This document shows positions 4,439 to 17,653 of a DNA stretch of 45,654 nt, piece by piece. Both the position numbers and the translations under genes were made by a program. The notes below the pieces were generated by a model. The model did not search any database and was not told the DNA's origin. It was given only the letters and a program-made list of their open reading frames with translations. Numbering within the stretch: the stretch's first letter is position 1; every line of letters begins with the position of its first letter. Origin of the DNA: an uncultured Clostridia bacterium (GTDB lineage Bacteria; Bacillota; Clostridia; Oscillospirales; Oscillospiraceae); contig CANBCW010000009.1 of assembly GCA_947367115.1 (NCBI GenBank), positions 1-45,654 on the forward strand, given 5' to 3'.

Positions 4439-4475
4439 GGTGGTATTTCTCCTTGCCTCATTCCAATTTGGTGTT

Positions 4476-4504
4476 ATTATACCAGTAAAAAGAAATGTGG
4501 TCAA
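4476..4504 (-). promoter_or_regulatory. radA promoter
   Basis: On the minus strand TTGACC (4504-4499), 17-bp spacer, TATAAT (4481-4476) with TG before it (extended -10). The radA ATG is 37 bp downstream. Confidence 0.7.
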
Positions 4505-4575
4505 GTGTTTGAAAACGCAGTTGGAAGATAAATTGTTGTTGACGAAATTATTGGCGCACGGAAAAAGACAAATAA

Positions 4576-4601
4576 AACCGCCCCACTTTTGTGGGGCGGT
4601 T
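4576..4601 (-). terminator. Terminator of the surface-protein gene
   Basis: Perfect 11-bp stem AACCGCCCCAC/GTGGGGCGGTT with TTTT/AAAA loop, followed on the minus strand by a T-rich run. It lies 21 bp past the stop at 4622. Confidence 0.8.
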
Positions 4602-4621
4602 CGGTCAGTTAAATCAGAAGA

Positions 4622-6181
4622 TCAGAATTCCTTCTTCTTCAGGACAACAACGCCAGCGGTGGCAGCCATCATGGCAACGACCAGACCAGCAACGCTCATG
4701 TCGCCAGTGCCGGGGTTCTCCTCACCGGGGTTCTCGCCTTCACCGGGGTTCTCCTCGGTAACGACAGTGATCTCATCAGCGAGGGTGTTGCGCAGCTGCA
4801 GGGTCACGTTATCATTCTTGGCGTAAATACCAACAGCGGCGGTGACATTCAGCTTATCGCCGACCTGAATAGCCCAAGAGCCATCCTCGTTCTTGTCAAC
4901 AACAGCCTTGTAGATCTGGATGGTGTTGGTGCCATCGGTCACGGTGATGTTGGGGCTGGTGTAGGCGCCGTCGTTATCAAAGACTTCGGTAACGGTCACG
5001 CCGGACAGCTTGACATAGGTGCAGACATCGGCAGTAGTCAGAGCATCGATGGTGGTTTCCTTAGCGGGCAGCTCCTGTGCGGTATAATCAGCCACATAGG
5101 TGCTGTTATTGAGCTGAGGCAGACCATTGTATGCACCCTTGGTGCCGGTAGCAGTGATGGTGTAGCCCAAGGTCAGATCAGCGGGGGTATCGCTGGTGCG
5201 GACGCAGATACCGCCAGTGGCATCCTGAATGTAAACATTCTTGCCGCCCTCGATGCATACAACAACACCCTTAACGGTGAATTCTGTGCCGTCCTCGCCA
5301 GCCAGAGCGGTAGCGATATCAACGATGGTGGGCTCCTCAGGCTCTTCCTCCTCGTTGGCAACAACTTCAACAGAAACAGTGCCAGCCTCAGCGTCGAAGG
5401 TAACGGTCACGGTGCTGACGGCCTCAACGGTAAACTTATAGTTATTACCGTTATCACCCCAGGAGGTGTCCCAGTTGCCAATATTGACCTTCAGCTCATA
5501 ATCAGCCGCAGGAACATTCTCGTAAACCTTGGTGTACAAGCCGTCCTCGCCCTTGGTCATCAGGCCGCTCTCATTCAGAGGAGCCCAGTTACCAAAGATC
5601 TCGGTGCTGCCGGTAACGTAGTAGTTGGTGGTCACTTCGGGCTCATCCCCGCCAGACTCAGCCTCATTGTAGTACACCTTGATGGACTTCCAGTAGAAGG
5701 TGTAGCCCAGATCATGCTCCATGTAGAAGTAGGTGTAGGTGTTCGCATCAGGAGTGATGGTATAGGTCTTTTCACCGGCTACGGTGGACAGCTTGGTGCT
5801 GTAGTCAGTGCCCTTCGCTTCGTTGCCAAAGTTGAAAATTACAGCATCAGCATTGGCGTAGGTAACATCCTTGGAATCGCTGTAGGTCAACTCAATCTTG
5901 GTGATTCCGCCAGGGAAAGCGTCGGTGTTCCAGAGCATAGAAGTATTGCCATTCTTGTCTCTTACCTGGATGCCGTCGCCGTAGTTGCCCAGCTGGATCC
6001 ACTCAACGCCAACACCATCAACGGTATTGCTGCCTGCGGAGTAAGATTGGGATGCCAGACCCAGAGAGTCGACAGTAAATTCGACATACTTCTCAGTCGT
6101 GGCAGAAGCGCCCAGGGGCAGCAGAGCCAGAACCAAGGTCAGGCACAGAGCAATGCTCAGGATCTTACTGATCTTCTTCAT
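4622..6181 (-). CDS. Sortase-anchored modular surface protein
   Basis: 519 aa, exported. Residues 1-27 are a signal peptide (MKKISK, hydrophobic core, ASA cleavage). The protein then shows an N-terminal beta-rich domain (~28-175), a segment from ~182 beginning NYYVTGSTEIFGNW that resembles the X25/starch-binding beta-sandwich modules of amylases and pullulanases, and an OB-fold-like domain (~285-475) with KGVVVCIEGGKNVYIQD, as seen in YhcR/DUF5689-type proteins. A Glu/Pro/Gly spacer leads to NPGTGD, a membrane helix and KKKEF, which is a sortase sorting signal of the LPXTG type with NP in place of LP. No catalytic domain is seen, so binding of a glycan or another surface ligand is the likely role. 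GGAGGAAA precedes the start; a weak leader hairpin lies at 6207-6227. Confidence 0.7.
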   Translation of the reverse strand: MKKISKILSIALCLTLVLALLPLGASATTEKYVEFTVDSLGLASQSYSAGSNTVDGVGVEWIQLGNYGDGIQVRDKNGNTSMLWNTDAFPGGITKIELTYSDSKDVTYANADAVIFNFGNEAKGTDYSTKLSTVAGEKTYTITPDANTYTYFYMEHDLGYTFYWKSIKVYYNEAESGGDEPEVTTNYYVTGSTEIFGNWAPLNESGLMTKGEDGLYTKVYENVPAADYELKVNIGNWDTSWGDNGNNYKFTVEAVSTVTVTFDAEAGTVSVEVVANEEEEPEEPTIVDIATALAGEDGTEFTVKGVVVCIEGGKNVYIQDATGGICVRTSDTPADLTLGYTITATGTKGAYNGLPQLNNSTYVADYTAQELPAKETTIDALTTADVCTYVKLSGVTVTEVFDNDGAYTSPNITVTDGTNTIQIYKAVVDKNEDGSWAIQVGDKLNVTAAVGIYAKNDNVTLQLRNTLADEITVVTEENPGEGENPGEENPGTGDMSVAGLVVAMMAATAGVVVLKKKEF

Positions 6182-6306: not shown

Positions 6307-7026
6307 TTACATATCTAAAATGTCCGCGGCTGACAGACTGAGGGTGGATGCGATGACGCAGGCGATCTTTTTCTGATATGCTTCGCTCTGAAGCAGAGCA
6401 TCCTCCTCCAGATTGGAAATAAATCCGCACTCCACCAGAATCCCCGGCCTGCTGATATGCTGCATGAGATAAATGCCGTCCGAGGCCTTACAACGGCGCT
6501 TGCTGCCCGGATTCAGCGTATTGATAAACGTTCCCTGGAGCTTTTCTGCCAGCGCCCGGCTGGTGTCATCGTCGGCGTAAAAGACCTGCGCGCCGCTGTA
6601 CCGTCCGTCCGGGAAGGTATTCTGATGGATGCTGACCAACACCCCATTTTCCGTTTCATTGACCAGCTTGACCCGCTGCTTCAGATCGGATACCTTCTGT
6701 GCCGCGATGGTATTGCCTTCCGTATAGATCGATGTATCCGTGGTGCGGATCATTAAGGTTTCATACCCCAGAAAATGCAGGAGATCGTTCAGGCGCAGGG
6801 CAATCTCCAGATTAAACTGACTTTCCAGTACGCCGGAACATGAGGTTGCTCCGCCATCAATGCCGCCATGGCCGGGATCAATAACGATGCAAGTTCGATC
6901 GGTGATGGGGGCGTTTTCCACCATGACTGTCACCGCGCCGCTTCCAAAGTGTGCAATGCATAAACACCCAACAAGTACCGCCGCATAGATCGGAAAGAAT
7001 TTCGTAATGGGAATACGCTTCTTCAT
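6307..7026 (-). CDS. cwlD: N-acetylmuramoyl-L-alanine amidase, CwlD type
   Basis: 239 aa from the ATG at 7026; the upstream extension is not preceded by a ribosome site. An N-terminal membrane anchor (IYAAVLVGCLCIAHFG) precedes an Amidase_3 domain: DPGHGGIDGG gives the first zinc His, LESQFNLE the Glu, SIHQN the second His, and ILVECGFISN the catalytic Glu. Length and architecture match B. subtilis CwlD (237 aa), which with PdaA makes the muramic-delta-lactam of spore cortex peptidoglycan. The neighbouring cotJ coat genes, transcribed away from it, fit a sporulation role. A vegetative amidase of the same family cannot be excluded. Confidence 0.75.
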   Translation of the reverse strand: MKKRIPITKFFPIYAAVLVGCLCIAHFGSGAVTVMVENAPITDRTCIVIDPGHGGIDGGATSCSGVLESQFNLEIALRLNDLLHFLGYETLMIRTTDTSIYTEGNTIAAQKVSDLKQRVKLVNETENGVLVSIHQNTFPDGRYSGAQVFYADDDTSRALAEKLQGTFINTLNPGSKRRCKASDGIYLMQHISRPGILVECGFISNLEEDALLQSEAYQKKIACVIASTLSLSAADILDM

Positions 7027-7069
7027 GGACAACACCTCGATGAACTCTATGCACCAAAGTGTCCCTAAT

Positions 7070-7098
7070 GAACATCCTGACAAACACTGGCATAGTAT
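7070..7098 (+). promoter_or_regulatory. Candidate sigma-E promoter of cotJ
   Basis: CATAGTAT at 7091-7098 resembles the sigma-E -10 (CATACANT); a weaker GAACATC lies 13-14 bp upstream. The TTG start of cotJAB is 49 bp downstream. cotJ is sigma-E dependent in Bacillus. An inverted repeat GGAAC-GACA-GTTCC (7104-7117) lies in the leader. Confidence 0.35.
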
Positions 7099-7146
7099 GA
7101 CGTGGAACGACAGTTCCAAATCCTTTTAGGATCGGAGGAATGATCA

Positions 7147-7590
7147 TTGGACAACAACAAAAATGAACGACAGGGCGGCGAGGGACGATTACCCTCCATG
7201 GCTCCCCTTGCCAATCCCTATGTTCCGTTCCAGCTTGAGAACCCACCAATGTATGAAGCACGGATGGGGTTGGTTCGGGGAACCTTGTTCCCGGGCCTGG
7301 ATCTCCCCTTCATGGGTATGGTCAATAAAAATGAGCGGAACATTACCCCAAGAACCGAGCTACAGACACTGGCCTTTGCCATTCAGGAATTGGCACTGTA
7401 TCTGGACACCCACCGGGATGATCAGGAAGCCCTGGAAATGTATCAGGCTTACCAGAAGATGTACCATCAGGGCATGATGGAATATGCTCGCCAGTACGGC
7501 CCTCTGAACCATCGCACGCCATCGGAGGGGGAATACCGCTGGCTTGATGATCCCTGGCCCTGGGAATACTGCGCGAACAAGGAGGACTGA
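7147..7590 (+). CDS. cotJAB: Fused CotJA-CotJB spore coat protein
   Basis: 147 aa starting at TTG (7147), 8 bases after GGAGG. Residues ~20-60 are CotJA-like (YVPFQLENPPMY, GLVRGTLFPGLDLPF). Residues ~65-145 are CotJB-like (ELALYLDTHRDDQEAL, YGPL, and DDPWPWEY at the end). In most spore formers these are two separate proteins of about 80-90 aa; here one continuous frame without internal stop carries both. CotJA and CotJB help place CotJC in the inner coat. cotJC follows after 2 bp with its own GGAGGA at 7581-7586, so the locus is one operon. Confidence 0.8.
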   Translation: MDNNKNERQGGEGRLPSMAPLANPYVPFQLENPPMYEARMGLVRGTLFPGLDLPFMGMVNKNERNITPRTELQTLAFAIQELALYLDTHRDDQEALEMYQAYQKMYHQGMMEYARQYGPLNHRTPSEGEYRWLDDPWPWEYCANKED

Positions 7591-7973
7591 CCATGTTTGT
7601 TTATGACAAAAAGCTTCAATACCCAGTAAAGATTGCCAAGCCCAATCCGCGTCTGGCTTCCATCATCATCTCCCAGTACGGCGGCCCGGATGGAGAGTTG
7701 GGGGCATCGCTGCGTTATCTGTCACAGCGGTATGCCATGCCCTTCGATGAGCTTAAGGGACTTCTAACGGATATCGGTACGGAAGAACTGGGGCATCTTG
7801 AGATGATCGGTGCCATCGTTCATCAGCTGACACGAAATCTAAAGGACGACCAGTACCGTGATCCCGCATTTGCTCCCTACTTTGTGGATCACACTGCGGG
7901 GGTCTACCCTACCGCAGCCTCAGGTTTCCCCTGGAGCGCCGCGAGCATGCAGGTCAAGGGCGACCCCATCGCA

Positions 7974-8023
7974 GATTTGACAGAAGATCTTGCAGCAGAT
8001 GCCGCGACGATACAAGAGCAACC
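7974..8023. other. attL of the cotJC element
   Basis: Left junction: cotJC sequence up to TTGCAGCA, crossover GA at 7998-7999, then the 24-bp element arm 8000-8023 ending GAGCAACC. This arm is an imperfect reverse complement of the arm at 17438-17461. Confidence 0.75.
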
Positions 8024-8043
8024 CATATTCCGGAGAAGAAAAA

Positions 8044-8099
8044 ATCACCCCCGATACGGCTTAACCCCCATTGGGGACAAGCGATATCGGGGGGTGGTT
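8044..8099 (-). terminator. Terminator at the left end of the element
   Basis: Long hairpin whose core pairs CCCCCGATA (8048-8056) with TATCGGGGG (8085-8093), with an inner CCCC/GGGG stem. On the minus strand it is followed by GATTTTTTC, so it ends the leftward cargo operon and shields cotJC from antisense transcription. Confidence 0.7.
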
Positions 8100-8154
8100 T
8101 TCCTAAAGTGTCAGATGACACTTTGAAATGTTATAATTCTTCCGCTTTTTTGAG

Positions 8155-8586
8155 TTATGTACCGTTCATTTTTCTTAAAGTTTCCTTGATTGCACGCAAA
8201 GCCTCTTTAGGCACCGATCGATTCAGCGTTGCCTGTTCCATCGGACAATAGCCTGTATTGGTTCTGTTGCGTATCATTTCTACCATGCGATCAAATGACA
8301 CATCGATCTCATAGCTTTTCAAAAGCTCCAACGCAGGAGCGCTGATAACAGATGCGTAAAGCTCTTTCACTCCCAGAAGTACGTAGAGGAATGCCGCCGC
8401 TTTGCCTACTACCTTATCAGCCGCACAGCTTCCCTTGTAGTTTTCTCCGGAATCCAACAAATTTAAAAGCGGTTTGACGCCGCGTTCATAGCTGGAGAAA
8501 ACGGTATCGCCCTTGATCAGCACACAGGTGAAGCCGCCCTCGGCAAGAGTTTCCTTTGCCTTGGCAATATCGCTGCTATTTTGCAT
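8155..8586 (-). CDS. DUF1893 family protein
   Basis: 143 aa from the ATG at 8586, preceded by AAGGAAG; an alternative TTG at 8607 lacks a ribosome site. The diagnostic segment of the DUF1893 family is clear: a GDTVFSS strand, then LLDSGENYKGSCAADKVVGK and AAAFLYVLLGVKELYA. Family members are small soluble proteins of unknown function, sometimes linked to nucleotide or redox chemistry; nothing here settles it. It is the last gene of the leftward cargo operon and its ribosome site overlaps the end of the aldo/keto reductase gene. Confidence 0.7.
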   Translation of the reverse strand: MQNSSDIAKAKETLAEGGFTCVLIKGDTVFSSYERGVKPLLNLLDSGENYKGSCAADKVVGKAAAFLYVLLGVKELYASVISAPALELLKSYEIDVSFDRMVEMIRNRTNTGYCPMEQATLNRSVPKEALRAIKETLRKMNGT

Positions 8587-8596
8587 ACGCACTTCC

Positions 8597-9718
8597 TTAT
8601 TGCTCAAATTCCTCGGCTACCGTTTCAAGCAGCTCACGGATATTCAAATGCTGTGGGCAAATCCCCTCGCATCGTCCGCATTTGATACAGTCGCTTGCTT
8701 TGCCGCCGTTTTTGGTGTGAATTTGATTATAGTAATACCCCGTGTTCCAATTGTTGAATATCTTTTTGGCATTCAGACAGGCAAACAGGTCGGGAATGGA
8801 GATCCCCTTGGAACAAACCTCGGTGCAATAACGGCAGGCCGTGCAGGAAACAGCACCCAAATTTCTAAAGATATCGCAAACCTTTTTAACTGCCTCACTC
8901 TCCTGTGTGTTGAGCGGCTGAAAATCCTTCATGTAGCTGATGTTATCGTTCATCATCTCCATATTTCCCATACCGGAAAAAACCATCATAACGCCCTCCT
9001 GCCCTGCGGCAAAGCGGATGGCATAGCTGGCGTTGGAGCCGCCGTGCAGCTCGTCAAACACCTTTTGCGCCTCATCCGGCAGATTAACAAGGCTGCCGCC
9101 CTTGACGGGTTCCATCACGATAGCGGGTTTTTGGTACTTCCTGCAGACCTCCAGACATTTACGAGCTTCGACGGATGCATCTTCAAAGTCGACATAGTTG
9201 AGCTGGATCTGCACCACCTCAACCTGCGGATATTCTGTCAGAATACGGTCAAGCACGGCGGCCTTATCGTGGAAAGAGATGCCGAGATGCTTGATCTTCC
9301 CCTCTTTAAGAAGCTCAAGCGCCGTTTCGTAGGCACGAAGGGATTTGTATTTCTCGAAGATCGTAGCATCCTGGGCGTGCATTAAGTAAAAGTCAAAGTA
9401 ATCAACGCCGCAGGCCTCAAGCTGACTCTCGAAAAGAGGACGAATATCCTCAGTCTTTGTGAAGTGGTTTGAAGACAGCTTATTCGTCAGAATATAAGTC
9501 TCGCGGGGATATCTTGATGTTAAACATTCCTTCAGGGCGATCTCGCTCTTGCCGTTCAGGTATCCGTGGGCCGTATCAAAGTAGTTGAAGCCTGCTTCGA
9601 GGAAAGCATCAACCATCTTTTTGGTCTCTACATAGTCCACCTCATCGCCCGCCATTGGCAGACGCATGCAGCCAAAGCCGAAATTCTTTTTTACGTTTTC
9701 AAAATAAGATTTGTTCAT
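8597..9718 (-). CDS. Aldo/keto reductase with C-terminal 4Fe-4S cluster domain
   Basis: 373 aa from the ATG at 9718 (GAAGG upstream). Residues ~1-280 form an aldo/keto reductase TIM barrel: FGFGCMRLPM, NYFDTAHGY (catalytic Asp and Tyr), LTNKLSS (Lys), FYLMHAQD (His). The C-terminal ~90 residues are ferredoxin-like, with CTACRYCTEVC and CIKCGRCEGICPQHLNI, enough cysteines for two 4Fe-4S clusters. Clostridia have many such fusions; they may reduce aldehydes or other carbonyls with NADPH or ferredoxin electrons in the cytoplasm. The substrate cannot be read from sequence. It is cargo of the cotJC element. Confidence 0.85.
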   Translation of the reverse strand: MNKSYFENVKKNFGFGCMRLPMAGDEVDYVETKKMVDAFLEAGFNYFDTAHGYLNGKSEIALKECLTSRYPRETYILTNKLSSNHFTKTEDIRPLFESQLEACGVDYFDFYLMHAQDATIFEKYKSLRAYETALELLKEGKIKHLGISFHDKAAVLDRILTEYPQVEVVQIQLNYVDFEDASVEARKCLEVCRKYQKPAIVMEPVKGGSLVNLPDEAQKVFDELHGGSNASYAIRFAAGQEGVMMVFSGMGNMEMMNDNISYMKDFQPLNTQESEAVKKVCDIFRNLGAVSCTACRYCTEVCSKGISIPDLFACLNAKKIFNNWNTGYYYNQIHTKNGGKASDCIKCGRCEGICPQHLNIRELLETVAEEFEQ

Positions 9719-9743
9719 AATAACCTTCAATTAGTCTCGCAGA

Positions 9744-10079
9744 CTATATGCCGCAAATGGTAAAACACTCATGTTCGCTAAAGCATTCTTCTACCCACGG
9801 CTTCAATTCTTCAATAACATTCGTCCATTGATCGTTTTCTTTCGATTTTGTGATAAGGTTCTTCCATTGCTCTTTGCTTACTTCATTCGGAGCATAATAA
9901 CAAAATGCCGCGATAGCACCAGAAAACAAATCGTAAAGCTGAAGTTTATCAAACACATCAACATGAATGCAAAGAGAATTTTGTAACCAAAACTTATTTC
10001 TAAATCTCCCTTTTTGAAACTCAAAATAACAGGTGCTGCCAGATGTTTTTCTTTCCGCTTTATTGAGAAAATGTTTCAT
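9744..10079 (-). CDS. Hypothetical protein, 111 aa
   Basis: Not recognised. Soluble, aromatic-rich, with a central segment LQLYDLFSGAIAAFCYYAPNEVS that could be one amphipathic or weakly hydrophobic helix, and three cysteines near the C-terminus (EECFSEHECFTICGI). The ATG at 10079 has GGTGAG seven bases upstream, and it sits 6 bp after the stop of ogt, so it is probably translated as part of the same operon. A link to methyltransferase or detoxification cargo is only guilt by location. Confidence 0.5.
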   Translation of the reverse strand: MKHFLNKAERKTSGSTCYFEFQKGRFRNKFWLQNSLCIHVDVFDKLQLYDLFSGAIAAFCYYAPNEVSKEQWKNLITKSKENDQWTNVIEELKPWVEECFSEHECFTICGI

Positions 10080-10085
10080 ATGATC

Positions 10086-10616
10086 TCACCTGCAACTTCT
10101 TATCCCACCATAGCATACATCAATTCCTTCGAGCTTTAACAGTTCAATTTTATTTTCCAATCCGCCGCCGTAGCCTGTAAGATTTCCGTTTGCGCCGACA
10201 ACTCTGTGACAAGGAATGATGATGCAGATCGGGTTCCAGCCTACCGCGCCGCCGACAGCCTGCGCGGACATTTTTGCCATTCCTCGGCTTTTTGCGATCA
10301 TTTTGGCAATGTCGTTGTAGGTCAGCGTTTTTCCGTATTCAATCGTATTCATAATATCCGAGACTTCTTTCCGAAAAGGCGTCAGGTTGTTTATTTTGTA
10401 TTTCGGCGTAAAATCCGGCACCTTGCCGCTAAAATACATATCGAGCCATCTGCACGTTTCCCGGAATATGGGCAGCACTTTTTTCTCGCCGTTTGTCTTG
10501 TGCTTTGATGAATCCTTGGAGCCTTCAAACCATAATCCAGTTAAGTTTTCACCGTCGCTGTTCATAATCATATCCGAAAACTGCGCAGGCGTTGTGTATG
10601 TGTAGGTATAAGTCAT
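10086..10616 (-). CDS. ogt: Methylated-DNA--protein-cysteine methyltransferase
   Basis: 176 aa. It has the alkyl-acceptor motif IIPCHRVVGANG followed by LTGYGGGLENK, the signature of Ogt/MGMT proteins that remove O6-alkyl groups from guanine onto the active-site Cys in a single suicidal turnover. A helix-turn-helix-like segment (TLTYNDIAKMIAKSRGMAKM) precedes it and inserts an arginine finger in the DNA groove. Length matches Ogt of Firmicutes (~165-180 aa). It lies 12 bp after the EamA transporter gene in the cargo operon. Confidence 0.9.
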   Translation of the reverse strand: MTYTYTYTTPAQFSDMIMNSDGENLTGLWFEGSKDSSKHKTNGEKKVLPIFRETCRWLDMYFSGKVPDFTPKYKINNLTPFRKEVSDIMNTIEYGKTLTYNDIAKMIAKSRGMAKMSAQAVGGAVGWNPICIIIPCHRVVGANGNLTGYGGGLENKIELLKLEGIDVCYGGIRSCR

Positions 10617-10628
10617 ATTTTTCTCCGC

Positions 10629-11495
10629 TTATCTGAAAATCGTCATTAAAAGCGTTCCGGCGACCATGAGTGCAAGTCCGAGGGCAGATTTTTTTGTTAG
10701 TTTTTCCTTAAACATCACATAGGAAAATGCAACGGTCACGAGAACGCTCAGCTTGTCAATCGGAACGACCACACTGACGATCCCCTCCTGAATCGCATAG
10801 TAATAGCAAAGCCAGGATGCACCGGTGGCGAGGCCCGAAAGAGATATGAAAATTAATTCCTTCTTGTCTATGTATTTCAGCTGCTTTTGCTTTCCTTTGA
10901 CAAACACGATGAGCCAAGCCATAACGAGAACAACTCCTGTGCGAATAGCGGTGCCGAGATTGGATTCCACGCCTGAAATACCGACTTTTGCAAGAATCGA
11001 AGTCAGCGCGGCAAATACCGCCGACAGTACGGCATAGATGATCCAGGACCTGCCCTCCGCTTTGCTTTGCACATCTTTCTTCTCGATCATCACCAGAATA
11101 CCAACGGCAAGAATCACGGTAGACAACAGCTTGACCCAAAGATTTGCGGTTTCCCCAAAACAGAGAATGGCAAGCAGTACTGCCAGCACGGTACTGGATT
11201 TATCGATAGGAACGACCTTGTTGATATCGCCCATAGACAGCGCCTTAAAATAGCAGAGCCAGGAAGCACCTGTTGCAAGGCCGGACAAAATCAGAAAGAT
11301 CAGGGATCTTGTTTCGATCTGTGGTACGGTACTTTGTGACCCAACGACCAGCACCATAATCCAGGAAAAGATCAGCACAACAACGGTACGCAGTGCCGTT
11401 GCCAGATCCGAGTCTGTTTTTTTAATTCCGCATTTTGCAAGGATAGCGGTCAGCCCCGCGAAAAAAGCTGACATTACGGCGGCTATGATCCACAC
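10629..11495 (-). CDS. EamA family (DMT) transporter
   Basis: 288 aa with two EamA repeats of about five membrane helices each; both repeats begin alike (WIIAAVMSAFFAGLTAILAK and WIIYAVLSAVFAALTSILAK) and share a SGLATGASWLCYFKA-type helix. Members export amino acids, drugs or other small metabolites; the substrate is not predictable. The start is set at GTG 11495: AAGGAGG lies at the right distance (11510-11504), while the upstream ATG at 11519 falls inside the -10 box of the promoter and would not be transcribed. It is the first gene of the leftward cargo operon (EamA, ogt, hypothetical, aldo/keto reductase, DUF1893). Confidence 0.8.
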   Translation of the reverse strand: MWIIAAVMSAFFAGLTAILAKCGIKKTDSDLATALRTVVVLIFSWIMVLVVGSQSTVPQIETRSLIFLILSGLATGASWLCYFKALSMGDINKVVPIDKSSTVLAVLLAILCFGETANLWVKLLSTVILAVGILVMIEKKDVQSKAEGRSWIIYAVLSAVFAALTSILAKVGISGVESNLGTAIRTGVVLVMAWLIVFVKGKQKQLKYIDKKELIFISLSGLATGASWLCYYYAIQEGIVSVVVPIDKLSVLVTVAFSYVMFKEKLTKKSALGLALMVAGTLLMTIFR

Positions 11496-11517
11496 TGTCC
11501 AATCCTCCTTTTTGATC

Positions 11518-11546
11518 ATTATACCGCTCTTTTACAAATAATTCAA
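11518..11546 (-). promoter_or_regulatory. Promoter of the EamA-ogt-AKR operon
   Basis: Minus strand TTGAAT (11546-11541), 17-bp spacer, TATAAT (11523-11518). Its position rules out the ATG at 11519 and supports the GTG at 11495. Confidence 0.7.
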
Positions 11547-11557
11547 TATATTGGAAT

Positions 11558-11584
11558 AAAAGCGTCGCACAATGCGACGCTTTT
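11558..11584 (-). terminator. Terminator of the MarR-MATE operon
   Basis: Perfect 12-bp stem AAAAGCGTCGCA/TGCGACGCTTTT with a 3-nt loop, just past the MATE stop at 11590, followed by T-rich sequence on the minus strand. Confidence 0.8.
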
Positions 11585-11589
11585 ATTGA

Positions 11590-12927
11590 TCAATAATGAT
11601 ATTTCTTCCGCTTTCCGAGCAGAAATGCAAGAGATACGAACACGCCTAAAATCTCGCTGCCGGCCAGCGAATACCACACGCCGTCAAGCTCCCAAATCAG
11701 CGGCATCACAATAATGCAAATGACAGGCAGAACCAGCGCGCGCATAAAGGAAATAGCGGCGGATACGGCTCCGTCATTGAGGGCCGTGAAGAAGCAGGAG
11801 GTATATATGTTGAACCACATCACAAGGAAGGGCGTAGCGCAAATCATAAAAGCACGAGCTGTCATATCCAAAAGCTCCGCATCGTACCCGACGAACACCG
11901 AAGCAATCGGGCGCGCAAGCATCATCGCCAATGCAGTAAGCACCGCTGCGGCAGAGCCGAGCATGATCAGGCTTCTTTTCAGCACATTCTTCATTTCCTT
12001 GAAATTCTGTGCGCCATAGTGATAACCCATAATAGGAGAACTGCCCTGAGAGTATCCATTGAACACGCCAAGGAAGACAAATGCCGCATACATCACAACA
12101 CCGTAAGCCGCCACACCGTCTTCGCCTGCATACTTCATTAGCTGAAGATTGTACAGAATACCTGTGATCGATGCGGACACACTGGACATCATTTCGGATG
12201 CACCGTTGCCGCAAGCAAGGAGCATCGGCTTGAGCTCAAAATTCGTTTTGGTAAAACGAAGTGCTGACTTGTTCTTCTTGCTAAGAAACCATAGAAACGG
12301 AATAACACCGGCAACACATTGGCTCAGTCCGGTTGCAAATGCTGCACCCGCTATTCCCATCGGAAGCACTGCCATGAGCACATAGTCCAAAATCATGTTG
12401 GACACACCGGCTGCTATCACAACTCCCAGTGCCAGCTTCGGCTTTTCGGCAACGATCAAATAGCTTTGGAACGTATACTGCGCCTGTAACGCCGTGTTGA
12501 AAAGCAAACAAATGGTGCCGTAGGTCATCACGTCACCAATCATGGCTTCCGTCGCGCCGAACAGGTAAGCAACCGGACGAAGAACGGCGATACCGACCAC
12601 CGTAAAGAAAATACTTGTCCCAAGCATAAGATACATCATCATGGTGAAGTACCGTCTTGCTTTCGGAATATCGCCCTCACCCAAGGTTTTCGCCACCAGT
12701 GCACTGCCGCCGACGCCGAGCATAGCGCCGACACCGCCGATGATCTGCAAAAAAGGGATAATCAGATTGACAGATGCAAAGGCTGTTTTACCAACAATAT
12801 TGGAGATAAAAAAGCCATCAACCATACCATAGATGGATGTGAATATCATCATGCAGATGGAGGGCAAGGTAAACCGAAGCAATCTGCTGTAGGTAAAATG
12901 ATCGGATAATTGAATTTGCTGTTTCAT
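11590..12927 (-). CDS. MATE family multidrug/cation antiporter (first copy)
   Basis: 445 aa, about 12 membrane helices in two MatE halves. Typical segments: PSICMMIFTSIYGMVDGFFI near the N-terminus, GGSALVAKTLGEGD, and NGYSQGSSPIMGYHYGAQNF in the second half. MATE proteins use sodium or proton gradients to expel cationic drugs and metabolites. The ATG overlaps the stop of the cytidylate-kinase-like gene (ATGA), so the two are translationally coupled under the MarR-controlled promoter. It is distinct in sequence from the second MATE gene of the element. Confidence 0.88.
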   Translation of the reverse strand: MKQQIQLSDHFTYSRLLRFTLPSICMMIFTSIYGMVDGFFISNIVGKTAFASVNLIIPFLQIIGGVGAMLGVGGSALVAKTLGEGDIPKARRYFTMMMYLMLGTSIFFTVVGIAVLRPVAYLFGATEAMIGDVMTYGTICLLFNTALQAQYTFQSYLIVAEKPKLALGVVIAAGVSNMILDYVLMAVLPMGIAGAAFATGLSQCVAGVIPFLWFLSKKNKSALRFTKTNFELKPMLLACGNGASEMMSSVSASITGILYNLQLMKYAGEDGVAAYGVVMYAAFVFLGVFNGYSQGSSPIMGYHYGAQNFKEMKNVLKRSLIMLGSAAAVLTALAMMLARPIASVFVGYDAELLDMTARAFMICATPFLVMWFNIYTSCFFTALNDGAVSAAISFMRALVLPVICIIVMPLIWELDGVWYSLAGSEILGVFVSLAFLLGKRKKYHY

Positions 12928-13544
12928 TCTTTTCTCCCAAACCAGCGCTGTGCAAAATCTGCCACAGCAGGCACTAATTCTTTAATTTTCCAATCGGTTG
13001 TGTTAACGGTTAGATGGTAAGCATCACGCTGTCCCCATACAGAGCCGCCTATGAACTCTCTTGTTTGAGAACGTACCTTGTCGATCTGCTTCATTTTGCG
13101 GACAAGTTCTTTTTCTGTAAGGCGCTCGCCTTCGGGCATACGCTCAATGCAGCGTTTCACTTTGGAACTTGTATCTGCACAGACAAAGATATTGAAAGGC
13201 TGATATTCCTGCAGGATAACATCCGCATTTCGGCCTACGATAATGCAGTCCTTTCCCAACGCGGCGATCTGTTCAATGACTTTCTTTTGCTCCAAAAGCA
13301 GATTGATCTTGGAAGACTGGATGTATGCGGAAGAAGCAAGCGTTCCTCCGAATGTAATGACCTGATTCTGCCAGCCGTGGTTGGAAAGGGAGTTTTCTAC
13401 ATAGTGTTCATCCATGCCGCTGTTTTTGGCAACGGCAGAGATAATCTCACTGTCGTAATAGTCAAAGCCTGTCAGGTCGGCAAGGCGTTTGCCAAGCTCT
13501 CTGCCGCCCGAACCAAATTCGCGGCTTATCGTAATAATTTTCAT
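12924..13544 (-). CDS. Cytidylate-kinase-like family protein
   Basis: 206 aa. The P-loop is ISREFGSGGRELGKRLA at residues ~6-22, the SREFGSGG form typical of the cytidylate-kinase-like family (PF13189) rather than housekeeping Cmk. Later segments CIIVGRNADVIL and FVCADTSSKVKRC fit the kinase core. Substrate unknown: family members are often beside transport or regulatory genes in Clostridia. ATGA overlaps join it to the marR gene upstream and the MATE gene downstream, so all three are one tightly coupled unit. Confidence 0.8.
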   Translation of the reverse strand: MKIITISREFGSGGRELGKRLADLTGFDYYDSEIISAVAKNSGMDEHYVENSLSNHGWQNQVITFGGTLASSAYIQSSKINLLLEQKKVIEQIAALGKDCIIVGRNADVILQEYQPFNIFVCADTSSKVKRCIERMPEGERLTEKELVRKMKQIDKVRSQTREFIGGSVWGQRDAYHLTVNTTDWKIKELVPAVADFAQRWFGRKE

Positions 13545-13993
13545 AAATTCTCTCCTTGTAATTTCTCTGTTTCTTCCCGCAGGGAAACAGTCAATCTCGT
13601 TGTCATTTCAAGATAGGTTTCTAATTCTTCACGGCTGAGGGCTGAATACGCACGGGATTCCGCCTCAATCAGCGGTGCGATAGTAACTTCTGCAAGTGCA
13701 GTTCCTTTCTCAGTAAGCAGGATCTTCTTTTGGTTACGCGTGCCGGGGATGACTTCCAGTTCCACATAGCCGTTTTGGGAAAGGCTTGTTATAGCAGTGT
13801 TCACCGTCTGCTTGGCGAAAAAACATTGGCGGCACAGCTCCTGCTGTGTGATCACATCGTGTGATGCGTAAACATTATACAACACCCACATAGCCGTGTC
13901 GGAAAGACCAAATTTCAAAGCGACATTATGATAGATAAATTCCTGTTCTTTTCTTTGCTGCTCGATCTGCTCAATGTAATCGGTTATTTTCAT
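13541..13993 (-). CDS. MarR family transcriptional regulator
   Basis: 150 aa from the ATG at 13993 with GGAGGT upstream; longer frames run through the promoter. It has a winged helix-turn-helix: HDVITQQELCRQCFFAKQTVNTAITSLSQNGYVELE with the wing IPGTRNQKKILLTEKG, flanked by helices for dimerisation. It probably represses its own operon, since two palindromes of the same core (AGTCCG/CGGACT) overlap the promoter just upstream. Inducer likely a substrate of the adjacent MATE pumps. Confidence 0.88.
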   Translation of the reverse strand: MKITDYIEQIEQQRKEQEFIYHNVALKFGLSDTAMWVLYNVYASHDVITQQELCRQCFFAKQTVNTAITSLSQNGYVELEVIPGTRNQKKILLTEKGTALAEVTIAPLIEAESRAYSALSREELETYLEMTTRLTVSLREETEKLQGENL

Positions 13994-14012
13994 GTTTACC
14001 TCCAAACGCAAG

Positions 14013-14038
14013 ACAAGAGTCCGTAGGCGGACACTTGT
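14013..14038. promoter_or_regulatory. MarR operator, downstream copy
   Basis: Imperfect palindrome ACAAGAGTCCG-TAGG-CGGACACTTGT, 10 of 11 positions symmetric, between the promoter and the marR start. Confidence 0.6.
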
Positions 14039-14041
14039 AGT

Positions 14042-14070
14042 ATTATAGTCCGATAACGGACTCTTGTCAA
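14042..14070 (-). promoter_or_regulatory. marR operon promoter with embedded operator
   Basis: Minus strand TTGACA (14070-14065), 17-bp spacer, TATAAT (14047-14042): perfect consensus. The spacer holds the palindrome AGTCCG-ATAA-CGGACT (14047-14062), the same core as the operator at 14013-14038, so a bound MarR dimer would block RNA polymerase. Confidence 0.75.
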
Positions 14071-14095
14071 TGGATTTTAGAAATGAACTTTTATC

Positions 14096-14124
14096 TTGAA
14101 AATTTCCAAAAGGAATGATATAAT
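14096..14124 (+). promoter_or_regulatory. Promoter of the second MATE gene
   Basis: TTGAAA (14096-14101), 17-bp spacer, TATAAT (14119-14124) with TG in extended -10 position. Predicted transcript start is near 14131. Confidence 0.7.
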
Positions 14125-14141
14125 ATGCATAGTGAGTAGCC

Positions 14142-14181
14142 AAAAGGCGTAAGTCCAACTTTCGATGGACTTACGCCTTTT
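14142..14181 (+). terminator. Leader hairpin, possible attenuator
   Basis: Perfect 16-bp stem starting AAAAGGCGTAAGTCCA (14142-14157) with an 8-nt loop and its complement at 14166-14181, ending in TTTT. It lies between the promoter at 14096 and the ribosome site of the MATE gene, so it is transcribed only as part of that leader. No known riboswitch class was recognised. Confidence 0.6.
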
Positions 14182-14203
14182 CTGCGTTTTAGGAGGAATT
14201 TAA

Positions 14204-15589
14204 ATGGAAAATATCAAACAAAACAAAATGGCAACCGAGCCTGTCAAGAAACTATTTTGGAAGATGGGTTTGCCGATGATCATATCCATGGTCTTGCAGG
14301 CCCTTTACAACGTCGTTGACAGTATTTTCGTTGCCAATATGGAAGGCACCGGTGCGCTTGCAAACGAAGCACTCACGATTGCGTTCCCGATTCAAATCAT
14401 GATCATAGCCATCGGTGTTGGAACAGGCGTGGGCTTGAATGCTTTGCTTTCCATGAGCCTTGGCGAAAAGAACGGAGAAAAGGTTAACACCGTGGCAGGA
14501 AACGGTATCTTCCTTTGTCTTGTCATTTACGCCGTATTTCTCTTGTTTGGCCTGTTCCTTGCCAAGTGGTTTATCGGTCTGTTTACCGATAACGCTGCTG
14601 TTCTGACGATGGGAACGAATTATCTTCGCATTTGCACCTGCTTTTCGCTCGGTGCGATAGGCTTTAATATTTACGAGCGTTTTCTGCAGGCAACTGGCAA
14701 GACCGTTTGCTCTACGATTGCCCAGATTTCGGGGGCAGTTGCCAATATCGTACTTGACTATGTATTTATCTTTCCGCTTGATATGGGCGTTGAAGGTGCA
14801 GCTTGGGCAACGATCATTGGTCAGTTTATCTCAATGTTCGTTGCAATGGCATTCCATTATTTTAGTAATAAAGAGATTGGCGGCAGCCCTAAATATATCA
14901 AACCGAACGGTGCGATTATCAAGGCGGTTTACAGGATCGGTGCTTCCGCTGCTTTGATGCAGGCTTTCCTGTCGGTGATGATGGCGGGAGTAAACGCCAT
15001 ACTCGGAAGCGCAAACGTCGATTCCACCATTCTGGTCGGCTCATTTGGTATCTACTACAAAATTCAGCAGATTGCCTTGTTTTCCGCGTTTGGTCTGTCC
15101 AACACAATGATTACGGTTCTTTCCTTCAACTATGGTATGAAGAACAAAGAAAGAGCAGAAGCATGTGTAAAATGCGGCATTATCGATACCCTTATTACAA
15201 CGCTTGCACTGACGGTACTGTTTGAGATAATTGCAAAACCTCTGTCAATGCTATTCTCCTTGTCGGGCGGTGCATCTGCGGCTCTTGTGGATGTGTGCGC
15301 TATGGCAACAAGAATTGCCAGCCTTGGGTATATCTTTATGGGATTCACAGTTGCCGTGCAAGGTGTTTTGCAGGCACTTGGATATGCAGGTAAGCCTTTA
15401 CTGCTCTCCTTCTTCCGCTTGATTTTATTTGTTTTCCCGATTGCCTATCTGTTCACCTTATCGACAAACGTACTGAACCTGGTTTGGTGGACCTTCCCGA
15501 TTGCCGAAGCGCTGACCTGCATTTTTGCATATATCTTCTTAAAAAACGTAATGAAGAATAAAATTGATACGATTTCTACCGGTAAATGA
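14204..15589 (+). CDS. MATE family multidrug/cation antiporter (second copy)
   Basis: 461 aa, about 12 membrane helices. It begins KLFWKMGLPMIISMVLQALYN, with the VVDSIFVANMEG segment and GVGTGVGLNALLSMSLGE typical of NorM/MepA-like MATE proteins. AGGAGG at 14192-14197 serves the ATG at 14204. It is divergent from the marR operon and has its own promoter and a long leader hairpin, which suggests separate control. Presence of two unlike MATE pumps in a 9-kb element points to a protective cargo. Confidence 0.88.
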   Translation: MENIKQNKMATEPVKKLFWKMGLPMIISMVLQALYNVVDSIFVANMEGTGALANEALTIAFPIQIMIIAIGVGTGVGLNALLSMSLGEKNGEKVNTVAGNGIFLCLVIYAVFLLFGLFLAKWFIGLFTDNAAVLTMGTNYLRICTCFSLGAIGFNIYERFLQATGKTVCSTIAQISGAVANIVLDYVFIFPLDMGVEGAAWATIIGQFISMFVAMAFHYFSNKEIGGSPKYIKPNGAIIKAVYRIGASAALMQAFLSVMMAGVNAILGSANVDSTILVGSFGIYYKIQQIALFSAFGLSNTMITVLSFNYGMKNKERAEACVKCGIIDTLITTLALTVLFEIIAKPLSMLFSLSGGASAALVDVCAMATRIASLGYIFMGFTVAVQGVLQALGYAGKPLLLSFFRLILFVFPIAYLFTLSTNVLNLVWWTFPIAEALTCIFAYIFLKNVMKNKIDTISTGK

Positions 15590-15594
15590 TTGTT

Positions 15595-15617
15595 AGGGCT
15601 GATGAAAAATCAGCCCT
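15595..15617 (+). terminator. Terminator after the second MATE gene
   Basis: 9-bp stem AGGGCTGAT/ATCAGCCCT with a GAAAA loop; moderate T content downstream. Confidence 0.65.
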
Positions 15618-15673
15618 GAAATGTTTATTAGCAAATAACATCCCCCCTTTCATCTTGTCGGTACGCTACTGGC

Positions 15674-15704
15674 GGAATAGCGGACTTGCCGCTGTTCATA
15701 TAGT
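15674..15704 (+). promoter_or_regulatory. Candidate sigma-E-like promoter of the recombinase operon
   Basis: CATATAGT (15697-15704) differs by one base from the sigma-E -10 CATACANT; GGAATAG (15674-15680) lies 16 bp upstream, a little wide for sigma-E. No good sigma-A promoter is seen between the MATE terminator and the small ORF. A short hairpin AGCGG-ACTTG-CCGCT (15679-15693) overlaps the spacer. Weak evidence by sequence alone. Confidence 0.3.
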
Positions 15705-15731
15705 GTAGTACCAACTGGAAAGGAGTAGATT

Positions 15732-15884
15732 ATGGCAGAAAACGAAAAAACTACAATCGTTTGTAAAAGTGTTTTCAAAAGCGGCGAAAGCACTACCACG
15801 GATCGAGAATTCACAGACAAGTGGATCGAACTGGTCAATACTTTGGAAAAAGGCAAAGGTGCTGCCTTTCCCGAAAACACATGA
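15732..15884 (+). CDS. 50-aa protein coupled to the recombinase; candidate excision factor
   Basis: The 50-codon frame begins MAENEKTTIVCKSVF and ends GAAFPENT, with AAAGGAG seven bases before the ATG. Its stop overlaps the recombinase start (ATGA). It contains a beta-strand-like TTIVCKSVFKSG stretch and a helix TDREFTDKWIELVNTLEK. Small proteins encoded next to clostridial serine recombinases include TnpW-type proteins, which it loosely resembles, and the recombination directionality factors needed for skin excision. Either is plausible; the role is an inference from position and size. Confidence 0.6.
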   Translation: MAENEKTTIVCKSVFKSGESTTTDREFTDKWIELVNTLEKGKGAAFPENT

Positions 15885-17437
15885 CAAAAGCAGCTATTTA
15901 TTGCCGCTTATCCGAAGAAGATCGAAACAAGCAAGAAGAGACCGACGATTCAGGCAGCATCCAAAACCAAAAGGCAATGCTGGTGCAATACGCGGCTTCT
16001 CAGGGGTGGGAAATTTACTGTATTTACAGCGACGATGACTATGCCGGTGCGGACAGGCGCCGGCCGGAATTCAACCGTCTGCTGCAGGACGCGGAAGCGA
16101 AAAAGTTTGATATTGTCCTCTGCAAGACGCAATCCCGGTTCACCCGTGAACTGGAGCTGGTGGAAAAGTACATCCACGGTTTGTTCCCAGTATGGGGCAT
16201 CCGCTTTATCAGTATCGTGGACAATGCCGATACCGCCAACAAGGGCAACAAAAAGTCCCGCCAGATCAACGGCCTTGTGAACGAGTGGTACCTGGAGGAT
16301 ATGTCCGACAACATCCGCAGCGTTCTTAAAAACCGGCGGGAAAATGGTTTCCATATCGGTGCCTTTGCCCTTTATGGGTACAAAAAGGATCCCGACCAAA
16401 AGGGGCATCTGATCATCGACGAGGAAGCCGCCGCCGTCGTCCGCGAGGTGTTCACCCTCTTCTCCCAAGGCTACGGCAAGACTGCGATCGCCCGTATGCT
16501 CAACGACAGGGGCATCCCCAATCCAACCGAATACAAGCGTCTGAAAGGACTGCGCTACAAACAGCCAACCGCCAAGAACAGCACCCTTTGGAAGTACTGT
16601 GCGATTTCCAATATGCTGACGAACGAAATTTATATTGGCAACATGGTGCAGGGTAAGTACGGCAGTATTTCCTATAAGACCAAGCAGAACAAGCCCCGCC
16701 CCAAAGAAAAATGGTACGTCGTTGAGGGAACGCACGAACCCATCATCGACCGCGAACTTTGGGACAGAGTGCAGAAGATGGTGCAAGCGCGGGCGAAGCC
16801 TTTTGACGTTGGCACTATCGGTCTGTTTGCAAGGAAAGCCCGCTGTGCCAATTGTGGATATGTGATGCGTTCCTCCAAGAATCGTGGCAAGCATTATCTG
16901 CAATGCTCTAACCGTCACGTGGCGAAGGATGCCTGCATCGGCTCCTTTATCTCGGTTGACAAGCTGGAGCAGATGGTAATTGATGAGCTGAAGCGACTTT
17001 CCGCGGAGTATCTGAACAAGGACGATTTGGAAAGGAAGATCGCATTCGCGGGCAACCTGCAATCGCAGAAAGACAGTATTCTCAAAAATATTGCTTCCTA
17101 TGAGAAGCGTGTTGCGGAACTGTCTAAAGGTATTCGGGAACTGTACATGGATAAAGTCAAGGGTCTGATCAGCGGTGCTGACTATGCAGAGATGTCCAAG
17201 GGCTTTCTCGATGACCGTGCCCGCCTTGAAAAACTGATTTCGATTGGACGCAGACAGATTGAAGAAATCGATGTACAAATCGAAGTCGGAGATAATCGTC
17301 GGGAGATTACCCAGCGTTACACAAACCTCAAACACCTGAACCGGGAGATGGTTGAGATTCTTATCGACTACATTTCCGTGGGCAAGAGAATCAAAGGAAC
17401 AAGAGAGGTTCCAATCACGATTCATTGGGCGTTTTGA
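15881..17437 (+). CDS. Large serine recombinase of the cotJC element
   Basis: 518 aa from the ATG at 15881. Resolvase-type catalytic domain (~1-150): AAIYCRLSEED with the nucleophile Ser near residue 10, and TQSRFTREL with catalytic arginines. A Recombinase domain (~165-270) follows (FALYGYKKDP, EVFTLFSQGYGKTAIARMLN), then a zinc ribbon with CANCGYVMRS...CSNRH...C (~325-360), a coiled coil (~390-470) and a C-terminal tail. This is the SpoIVCA/TnpX/phiC31 class that joins attL and attR when helped by a directionality factor. The stop codon at 17437 abuts the predicted attP arm. Being at one end of an element that splits a sporulation gene, it is the analogue of SpoIVCA of the sigK skin element. 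Confidence 0.93.
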   Translation: MTKAAIYCRLSEEDRNKQEETDDSGSIQNQKAMLVQYAASQGWEIYCIYSDDDYAGADRRRPEFNRLLQDAEAKKFDIVLCKTQSRFTRELELVEKYIHGLFPVWGIRFISIVDNADTANKGNKKSRQINGLVNEWYLEDMSDNIRSVLKNRRENGFHIGAFALYGYKKDPDQKGHLIIDEEAAAVVREVFTLFSQGYGKTAIARMLNDRGIPNPTEYKRLKGLRYKQPTAKNSTLWKYCAISNMLTNEIYIGNMVQGKYGSISYKTKQNKPRPKEKWYVVEGTHEPIIDRELWDRVQKMVQARAKPFDVGTIGLFARKARCANCGYVMRSSKNRGKHYLQCSNRHVAKDACIGSFISVDKLEQMVIDELKRLSAEYLNKDDLERKIAFAGNLQSQKDSILKNIASYEKRVAELSKGIRELYMDKVKGLISGADYAEMSKGFLDDRARLEKLISIGRRQIEEIDVQIEVGDNRREITQRYTNLKHLNREMVEILIDYISVGKRIKGTREVPITIHWAF

Positions 17438-17487
17438 GGTTGCACTTTTGACGTTGCAGCAGAACAGAAGGCTCGCGTCACATACGA
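17438..17487. other. attR of the cotJC element
   Basis: Right junction: 24-bp element arm 17438-17461 beginning GGTTGCAC and ending TTGCAGCA, crossover GA 17462-17463, then cotJC sequence. The arm mirrors 8000-8023. Confidence 0.75.
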
Positions 17488-17653
17488 TAACATCCTGCGG
17501 CTGTCCGATGACCCGGATGTGAACGATGTGATCAAATTCCTGCGGGAGCGGGAGATCGTCCACTTCCAGCGCTTCGGAGAAGCCATGCAGCTTTTACGCG
17601 AAAAGCTCAACCAAAAGAACGTCTATTTTATGAATCCGGCATTTGATATTTAA
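17462..17653 (+). pseudogene. cotJC: cotJC, detached 3' part
   Basis: 63 codons plus stop, read EQKARVTYDNILRLSDDPDV through REREIVHFQRFGE to MNPAFDI. No start or ribosome site of its own. It continues CotJC exactly where the 5' part at 7593-7997 stops, and supplies metal ligands E136 and H169 of the restored protein. The 33-residue spacing between them equals that of E148 and H181 in L. plantarum manganese catalase. The frame is open with no decay, which argues that the gene is kept under selection and is restored by excision. Confidence 0.92.

What the first reader, a model, noticed from the sequence alone, without database searches (positions are those of the whole stretch)
7593..17653. 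cotJC is split by a skin-like element whose excision restores the gene exactly
Seen: codons 1-135 of cotJC end at 7997 and the remaining 63 codons plus stop lie at 17462-17653. Both junctions carry TTGCAGCAGA, and joining them gives a 198-codon frame with family-correct sequence. A large serine recombinase ends 16 bp before the right shared block. Known: sigK in B. subtilis and C. difficile, and spsM and spoVFB in bacilli, are interrupted by elements excised in the mother cell by such enzymes. Inference: cotJC here is repaired the same way during sporulation. I cannot tell from here whether cotJC interruption has been reported before.
Basis: partly seen in the sequence, partly recalled or inferred. 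Interest (0 to 1): 0.95.

Follow-up and report, generated by a model that had tools for sequence, protein, structure and literature searches.

The report
Spore-coat gene split by excisable elements
In this bacterium the spore-coat gene cotJC is cut in two by a 9.5-kilobase DNA element that carries its own recombinase and is predicted to be cut out during spore formation, and across many related bacteria the same small gene is broken at six different points, nearly each with its own recombinase lineage, so the gene looks like a docking hub for mobile DNA that likely leaves it only in the dying mother cell.

Summary
cotJC codons 1-135 and the last 63 codons flank a 9,464-bp element; joined at the shared block they give an intact 198-aa CotJC, and no other copy is found in the assembly (88% complete). 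I place the crossover at the GA of codon 136, the centre of an inverted-repeat attP. There are six crossover codons (31, 53, 62, 65, 136, 175), nearly one recombinase clade per codon; 19 genomes carry two or more insertions, one probably four (five pieces). The neighbour asnA and the sporulation gene spoIVA show no such splits. Site-136 recombinases follow a conserved ~50-aa ORF and, in 54 of 76, a sigma-E-type promoter, the logic of the C. difficile skin element. Excision in the mother cell is inferred; no sporulating culture or reads were available. The mechanism class is known (skin, gin, yin); the target, the multi-site hub and the stacking look new. The papers searched list no report of cotJC interruption.

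The parts
7147..7590 (+). fused CotJA-CotJB ORF, operon partner of cotJC
   Evidence: Pfam CotJB 2e-25, CotJA 3.8e-13
7593..7999 (+). cotJC 5' part, codons 1-135 plus the GA of codon 136
7990..7999 (.). attL core TTGCAGCAGA; crossover GA at 7998-7999
   Evidence: only two copies in the window; dyad centre
7998..8031 (.). left end of the element with inverted-repeat arm (GAGCAACC)
   Evidence: attP dyad 16 of 27, background 6.9 +/- 2.3
8155..8607 (-). cargo: TM1506/DUF1893 protein
   Evidence: Pfam 3.1e-46
8597..9730 (-). cargo: aldo/keto reductase with 4Fe-4S domain
   Evidence: Pfam 2.8e-40
9744..10079 (-). cargo: ORF without Pfam match
10086..10616 (-). cargo: 6-O-methylguanine DNA methyltransferase
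   Evidence: Pfam 1.6e-28
10629..11519 (-). cargo: EamA-type transporter
   Evidence: Pfam 4.2e-35
11590..12927 (-). cargo: MatE transporter
   Evidence: Pfam 5.7e-37
12924..13544 (-). cargo: cytidylate kinase-like protein
   Evidence: Pfam 6.4e-37
13541..13999 (-). cargo: MarR-type regulator (ORF may start further upstream)
   Evidence: Pfam 4.7e-10
14204..15589 (+). cargo: second MatE transporter
   Evidence: Pfam 5e-35
15677..15704 (+). sigma-E-type promoter-like sequence, ATA-N17-CATATAGT (function inferred)
   Evidence: same type in 54 of 76 site-136 recombinase loci, shuffled mean 3.0; sequence read
15732..15884 (+). 50-aa ORF, candidate recombination directionality factor (inferred)
   Evidence: found in 76 of 86 site-136 recombinase loci; no Pfam, NCBIfam or PHROG match
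15881..17437 (+). large serine recombinase, 518 aa; start overlaps the small ORF
   Evidence: Pfam Resolvase, Recombinase, Zn_ribbon_recom, DUF4368
17430..17463 (.). right end of the element with inverted-repeat arm (GGTTGC) and attR core; crossover GA at 17462-17463
17462..17653 (+). cotJC 3' part, codons 136-198 and stop

Best explanation
cotJC is interrupted at codon 136 by a 9,464-bp mobile element that encodes a large serine recombinase next to the junction, and excision at the shared GA dinucleotide would restore the 198-codon gene exactly, most likely in the mother cell during sporulation. Shown: the split, the exact join, the inverted-repeat attP centred on GA, the recombinase, the conserved small ORF and the sigma-E-type promoter-like sequence in front of it. 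Inferred: the small ORF is the directionality factor; sigma-E switches it on (and here, through the ATGA overlap, also the recombinase) in the mother cell; the element is then cut out and cotJC is expressed for the spore coat, while the forespore keeps the element. More widely, cotJC is a repeated docking site in this order: recombinase lineages have settled on six conserved codons, several elements can be stacked in one gene, and the likely reason is that interrupting a mother-cell gene costs little if the element leaves in that terminal cell.
For: Exact join. 54 junction pairs of the window, order relatives and five named loci: the site's dinucleotide is shared in 53, is the best dyad centre in 46, and all 53 joins are free of stops. 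Of the best 80 site-136 recombinase relatives in named genomes, 75 have a cotJC fragment in the fetched stretch, 74 of them broken at codons 126-140. Tree of 82 recombinases: 6 label changes, the minimum, shuffled 46.3. Sigma-E-type promoter in 54 of 76, shuffled mean 3.0, maximum 8; small ORF in 76 of 86. Split parts keep low dN/dS; in three co-diverged loci exon dS is 0.28-0.37 with dN 0.020-0.033. Controls asnA and spoIVA show no such splits. 11 of 13 non-MAG carriers have no intact copy. Contig ends inside cotJC cluster at crossovers, 8 of 12. C. difficile skin uses the same logic (passages of PMC5025042).
Against: No excised junction or circle was seen directly. The promoter pattern was chosen after reading the upstream sequences; it is lacking in 22 of 76 site-136 loci and in 13 of 13, 16 of 16 and 4 of 4 recombinase upstream regions of sites 62, 31 and 65, so timing for those sites is unsupported. 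No such pattern lies in front of the window's own cotJ operon (6900-7200). Low dN/dS may reflect recent insertion, since recombinases move between distant hosts. One of 47 named-genome 3' parts has a stop (L191). Some elements look dead: truncated recombinases in G054 and G094; G157's two pieces are about 675 kb apart. Two of 13 carriers also have an intact second copy, 62-63% identical.
Confidence: 0.82

Rival explanations
1. cotJC is a dispensable safe harbour: elements integrate there only because its conserved codons are a good target, and the split gene is simply dead in carriers.
For: cotJC homologues seem redundant in C. difficile (passage of PMC11222575). Recombinases often use conserved sites inside genes (passages of PMC10083194). 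Some carriers have another intact copy, and a few elements look unable to leave (G054, G094, G157).
Against: Reading frames are kept in the 53 tested joins; dN/dS of split parts equals that of intact genes in the genus and stays low in three co-diverged carriers; a mother-cell-type promoter before the recombinase unit would be pointless; most carriers tested have no other copy.
Confidence: 0.08
2. Excision restores cotJC but is not developmental: the element flips in and out at random in growing cells, like phase variation.
For: Contig ends at crossovers, with an intact contig in the same assembly in G038 and G298, suggest that both forms coexist in samples. The yin element of C. botulinum is found integrated or excised within one culture (abstract passage of PMC10747680). 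Three recombinase clades lack a visible sigma-E-type promoter.
Against: The sigma-E-type promoter of 54 of 76 site-136 loci; the target is a sporulation gene, while asnA and spoIVA are spared. Contig forks may come from strain mixtures.
Confidence: 0.08
3. Assembly artefact: pieces of unrelated contigs or chimeric joins.
For: The window is from a draft assembly of 157 contigs; 19 of 253 genomes show one piece only.
Against: Splits occur in genomes of one or two contigs (G250, G203, G331, G325, G223) and in non-MAG records; asnA and spoIVA are not so split in the same 99 genomes; the junctions carry att dyads.
Confidence: 0.01

Closest known systems
skin element of C. difficile in sigK (PMC5025042; abstract and passages seen)
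   Same: Serine recombinase element inside a mother-cell sporulation gene; a separate factor under sigma-E/SpoIIID (CD1234) gives direction.
   Different: Target is the sigma factor gene; there recombinase and directionality gene are separate and the recombinase is constitutive. Here the target is a coat enzyme gene and, in the window, small ORF and recombinase overlap.
gin element in gerE of B. cereus ATCC10987 (PMC5595907; abstract and passages seen)
   Same: Element without phage genes inside a small sporulation gene; serine recombinase plus directionality factor; excision during sporulation was shown there.
   Different: Three recombinases in one element, one target site; no multi-site pattern in the passages seen.
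yin element in yabG of C. botulinum (PMC10747680; passages seen)
   Same: Prophage-like element in a sporulation gene; integrated and excised forms in one culture.
   Different: Single case; the paper states that no other element disrupting yabG was found in public spore-former genomes.
Interruption elements of heterocyst cyanobacteria (nifD, hupL, fdxN; PMC4874684; abstract section and passages seen)
   Same: Many elements in genes used by a terminal cell type; one gene (Rivularia nifD) carries four.
   Different: Different phylum and cell type. G243's cotJC, about 600 bp, probably also carries four.
LSR target survey (PMC10083194; passages seen)
   Same: Diverse recombinases converge on single conserved sites inside genes (magnesium chelatase, prolyl isomerase).
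   Different: 'Catalase' and 'spore' do not occur in its main text, and 'sporulation' only in a reference title. Its DUF4368/TndX-like clade is mostly multi-targeting, whereas the recombinase here has a DUF4368 match at the cut-off and belongs to a clade devoted to one codon.

Membership tests
skin-like sporulation gene-intervening element | insertion inside the reading frame of a sporulation gene, direct core repeats, exact restoration on joining | tested here: met
skin-like sporulation gene-intervening element | element encodes a large serine recombinase next to the att site | tested here: met
skin-like sporulation gene-intervening element | attP with inverted arms around a non-palindromic dinucleotide shared by attL and attR | tested here: met
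   GA, dyad 16 of 27
skin-like sporulation gene-intervening element | directionality factor encoded in the element | tested here: inconclusive
   conserved small ORF in 76 of 86 loci; function untested
skin-like sporulation gene-intervening element | mother-cell (sigma-E) control of recombinase or directionality factor | tested here: inconclusive
   promoter-like sequence in the window and in 54 of 76 relatives; expression untested; consensus recalled
skin-like sporulation gene-intervening element | excision during sporulation | not testable with these tools
   needs cultures or reads; contig forks are only indirect
prophage | phage structural or lysis genes in the element | tested here: not met
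   no phage or conjugation family among the cargo ORFs of the window's element; longer elements of relatives not tested
TndX/Tn4451-type multi-target transposon | many unrelated insertion sites | tested here: not met
   74 of 80 closest relatives lie at one place of one gene; 5 of the other 6 show no cotJC in the fetched stretch
CotJC (Mn catalase family) | Mn catalase domain with ligand motifs, in a cotJ operon | tested here: met
   Pfam; joined protein aligns over 1-184 with the Mn catalase 1jku (ligand roles recalled); CotJA/CotJB upstream

The most novel reading that the evidence does not exclude
cotJC is a general docking hub for sporulation-timed mobile DNA in gut Clostridia: at least six codons of one 600-bp gene, several at or beside its metal-ligand codons, are owned by dedicated recombinase lineages, and carriers rebuild the gene in the mother cell by one to four successive DNA excisions, in the extreme case (G243) from five pieces spread over 69 kb, one of them only a few codons long between two elements.
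Probability: 0.7. Interest if true: 0.93.

Novelty: new variant of a known kind. Interest (0 to 1): 0.88.

Why it matters
Known sporulation interruptions are few and mostly single cases. Here a third of the genomes with a cotJC match in one large order (83 of 253) carry the gene in pieces, so programmed DNA excision may be routine in spore formation by common gut bacteria, including cultured ones (Roseburia faecis M72, Clostridium fessum, Anaerotignum lactatifermentans, Flintibacter muris). It makes an open question testable: why such elements sit in sporulation genes. One gene with many independent insertions gives replicated natural experiments. It also yields recombinases with base-exact att sites, and it warns that annotation would call cotJC missing or broken in many genomes.

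Tried and rejected
Excised circles: the close circular plasmid record OY725852.1 holds the cotJC 3' part, so it is no excised element. Virus contigs: 16 loci with relatives of the recombinase, six with a cotJC fragment; I did not look for a free attP in the others. Phage records: 4 with a match, best identity 41%.

The sister recombinase in G086 (45% identity) lies beside EF-G-like and Fur-like genes (named by eye) and cotJC matches over 1-194 there, so the cotJC specificity belongs to the clade.

sigK as a further control: the TIGR02846 search could not separate sigK from sigE (listing capped); the window genome's two listed matches, on C18 and C7, span 21-226 and 18-226 of 227.

A first promoter pattern found 18 of 73 against 4.7 in shuffles. 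The pattern was chosen after reading the conserved upstream sequences, so it is not a blind test. The canonical crossovers were likewise read off. In 11 compact elements the stricter pattern gave 5 hits in 3 site-31 elements and none in the other 8.

Selection: pooled dN/dS cannot exclude recent insertion, because recombinases move between species.

Counts: I transcribed by hand the match rows (297 genomes asked at 90% completeness or more, the window's own included; 253 with a match). Rows under 50% identity, mostly a 36-40% paralogue, were left out. Result: 130 intact (7 with a slightly short C-terminus; one, G127, with an in-frame stop in its match), 83 split with pieces covering the gene, 4 split with a part missing, 19 one piece, 6 unclear C-terminus, 8 paralogue or weak match only, 3 assembly forks or contig ends. 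22 of 83 got two or more sites by the script; three (G163, G281, G239) are doubtful, leaving 19. One more contig end (G201 at codon 6) was not examined.
Full report
OBSERVATION. The window's cotJC is split exactly as described. The only two copies of TTGCAGCAGA in the window (7990-7999, 17454-17463) are the junction cores, and joining the flanks gives an intact 198-aa CotJC. The upstream ORF is a CotJA-CotJB fusion. The window's genome (2.18 Mb, 157 contigs, 87.8% complete) holds no other match to cotJC. It has spoIVA and two long sigma-E/K-type matches, so the lineage looks able to sporulate (inference).

ANATOMY. The element is 9,464 bp (7998-17461), GC 0.467 against 0.54 and 0.52 in the flanks. 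It carries two MatE transporters, EamA, MarR, an aldo/keto reductase, a methylguanine methyltransferase, a cytidylate kinase-like protein, TM1506 and an unassigned ORF; none is a phage or conjugation family. At the right end lie a sigma-E-type promoter-like sequence (15677-15704), a 50-aa ORF (15732-15884) and the recombinase (15881-17437), whose start overlaps the small ORF. The reconstituted attP has inverted arms GGTTGC...GCAACC centred on GA, which is also shared by attL and attR: dyad 16 of 27, background 6.9 +/- 2.3. GA is the first two bases of codon 136, a glutamate in a stretch that aligns with solved Mn catalases (that this Glu is a metal ligand is recalled).

THE GENE AS A HUB. Searching 99 relatives with the joined protein showed many split copies. 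In an order-wide sample of 297 genomes, 253 match: 130 intact, 83 split with pieces covering the gene, 40 partial or unclear. The splits fall in ten of the order's anonymous families (f1, f6, f10, f13, f16, f18, f19, f20, f23, f26). For 54 junction pairs I located the crossover by shared dinucleotide and attP dyad: codon 31 GG (12 pairs), 53 GA (1), 62 GG (14), 65 GA (4), 136 GA (20), 175 GA (3). The dinucleotide is shared in 53, best-ranked in 46, and all 53 joins are free of stops. The exception (G320 at codon 136) has a one-codon length difference in my coordinates. A further pair, G243 between codons 62 and 65, was set aside because two elements lie there. All six crossovers are at codon positions 1-2 of a Gly, Glu or Asp codon, so the core does not depend on the wobble base (my inference).

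ONE RECOMBINASE CLADE PER SITE, NEARLY. 141 of 165 recombinase ORFs in the fetched loci lie within 700 bp of a junction, 132 of them with the 3' end facing it; this set includes duplicate fetches. A tree of 82 rows (site-136 rows cut to 30, rows under 430 aa and duplicates dropped) needs 6 changes of site label, the minimum, against 46.3 shuffled. Sites 31, 62, 65 and 136 are each one side of a starred branch; the single site-53 row sits among the site-175 rows; the tool warns of long branches. I labelled the G009 recombinase by its crossover (codon 65). Of 13 such genomes with titles that do not say MAG, all 13 are split and 11 lack an intact copy. Blautia sp. An249 has three pieces on one contig; Pseudoflavonifractor sp. 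524-17 probably too (its last piece is weak, E 3e-4, with a stop).

STACKING. 19 genomes carry two or more insertions. In G243 the pieces 1-36, 21-71, 63-137 and 133-186 lie on one contig and strand over 69 kb, with recombinases at the junctions. Its left end at codon 62 and right end at codon 65 do not match each other. Between them lies a single GGNACNGANGA, at 228456, whose downstream arm gives the best dyad (15) of all GA positions in 49 kb for the codon-65 end; for the codon-62 end it scores 10, while other GGNAC positions score up to 12. The five-piece join reads as one CotJC without stops through the conserved region. The fifth piece is therefore likely, not proven.

CONTROLS. asnA next door: 67 of 99 genomes, 70 matches, none in two pieces, one partial (G064). 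spoIVA: 91 of 99 genomes; G004 has two pieces, each at the start of a contig, and G045 and G047 are partial. So neither assembly breaks nor sporulation genes in general explain the pattern; two control genes are a small sample.

REGULATION. The small ORF is found in 76 of 86 site-136 recombinase loci. ATA-N15-18-CATAnnnT, mostly with spacer 17, precedes the recombinase in 54 of 76 dereplicated loci, mostly about 285 bp upstream; shuffled mean 3.0, maximum 8; sites 62, 31 and 65 gave 0 of 13, 0 of 16 and 0 of 4; sites 175 and 53 gave no usable upstream region. By eye, several loci also show a TATAAT-type promoter between small ORF and recombinase. In C. difficile skin the recombinase is constitutive and the directionality factor CD1234 is under sigma-E and SpoIIID. 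I infer the same logic here. That the motif is read by sigma-E rests on the recalled consensus.

SELECTION AND MOBILITY. Codons 137-196: median dN/dS 0.054 in split copies (21 unsaturated of 45 pairs, 10 genomes), 0.047 in intact (67 of 136 pairs, 17 genomes); 5' parts 0.057 and 0.056. In 47 named-genome 3' parts one has a stop (L191) and the median is 0.158. Three loci (L208, L228, L230) have co-diverged recombinase and exon (dS 0.28-0.39) with exon dN 0.020-0.033, which suggests constraint while split; over all 62 unsaturated pairs the two dS values do not correlate (rho 0.19, p 0.13), and other pairs show recent spread of the recombinase between distant hosts.

SIGNS OF EXCISED FORMS. Of 12 contig ends inside cotJC examined, 8 fall within two codons of a crossover (7.7e-5 under an even spread), and in G038 and G298 another contig runs intact through codon 136. 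An assembly graph gives this when both forms coexist; strain mixtures would give it too.

LITERATURE. Ten searches of the held library (those naming cotJ, cotJC or manganese catalase are 6, 9, 29, 70 and 84) listed no report of an interrupted cotJC. Of the papers listed I opened seven, as passages, abstracts or one section; none was read whole, and the other listed papers were not opened. Papers outside that library were not searched.

VERDICT. The class of mechanism is known; the target, the breadth, a recombinase lineage for nearly each codon and the stacking make it a new variant.

Noticed in passing
G157 C1:198614-198805 and C1:873266-873643 (L256, L255): Two cotJC pieces with matching codon-62 att ends lie about 675 kb apart on one strand of a single-contig genome, in an order that a small excision cannot mend; probably a rearrangement.
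   Followed up: partly
OY725852.1 (L290) 3640-5511: A 23.9-kb record called a circular plasmid of Subdoligranulum variabile holds a site-136 recombinase and the cotJC 3' part, so it is probably a chromosomal piece.
   Followed up: yes
L266:1904-2533: The codon-31 element of G144 carries what looks by eye like an Fe/Mn superoxide dismutase gene, inside a Mn catalase gene.
   Followed up: no
L252:4000-5298: The 3.1-kb codon-62 element of the single-contig genome G250 holds a recombinase and what looks by eye like a pyrimidine-nucleoside phosphorylase gene.
   Followed up: no
L036:623-3901; L040:2415-5596: Two tandem recombinase ORFs of the site-136 family at one junction (G019, G058).
   Followed up: no
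window 15678-15693 and loci such as L160, L166: By eye, an inverted repeat (AGCGG-ACTTG-CCGCT) with paired changes lies between the two promoter boxes, and a longer one surrounds the TATAAT box before the recombinase in several loci: possible operators.
   Followed up: no
PMC11222575 (C. difficile R20291, phi027): The paper reports a CotJC-like catalase gene adjacent to prophage phi027; whether phi027 uses a site like those here was not checked.
   Followed up: no
L044:2048-3439; L035:4125-5345: Recombinases at codon 136 in G094 and G054 lack their C-terminal part: probably stuck elements.
   Followed up: no
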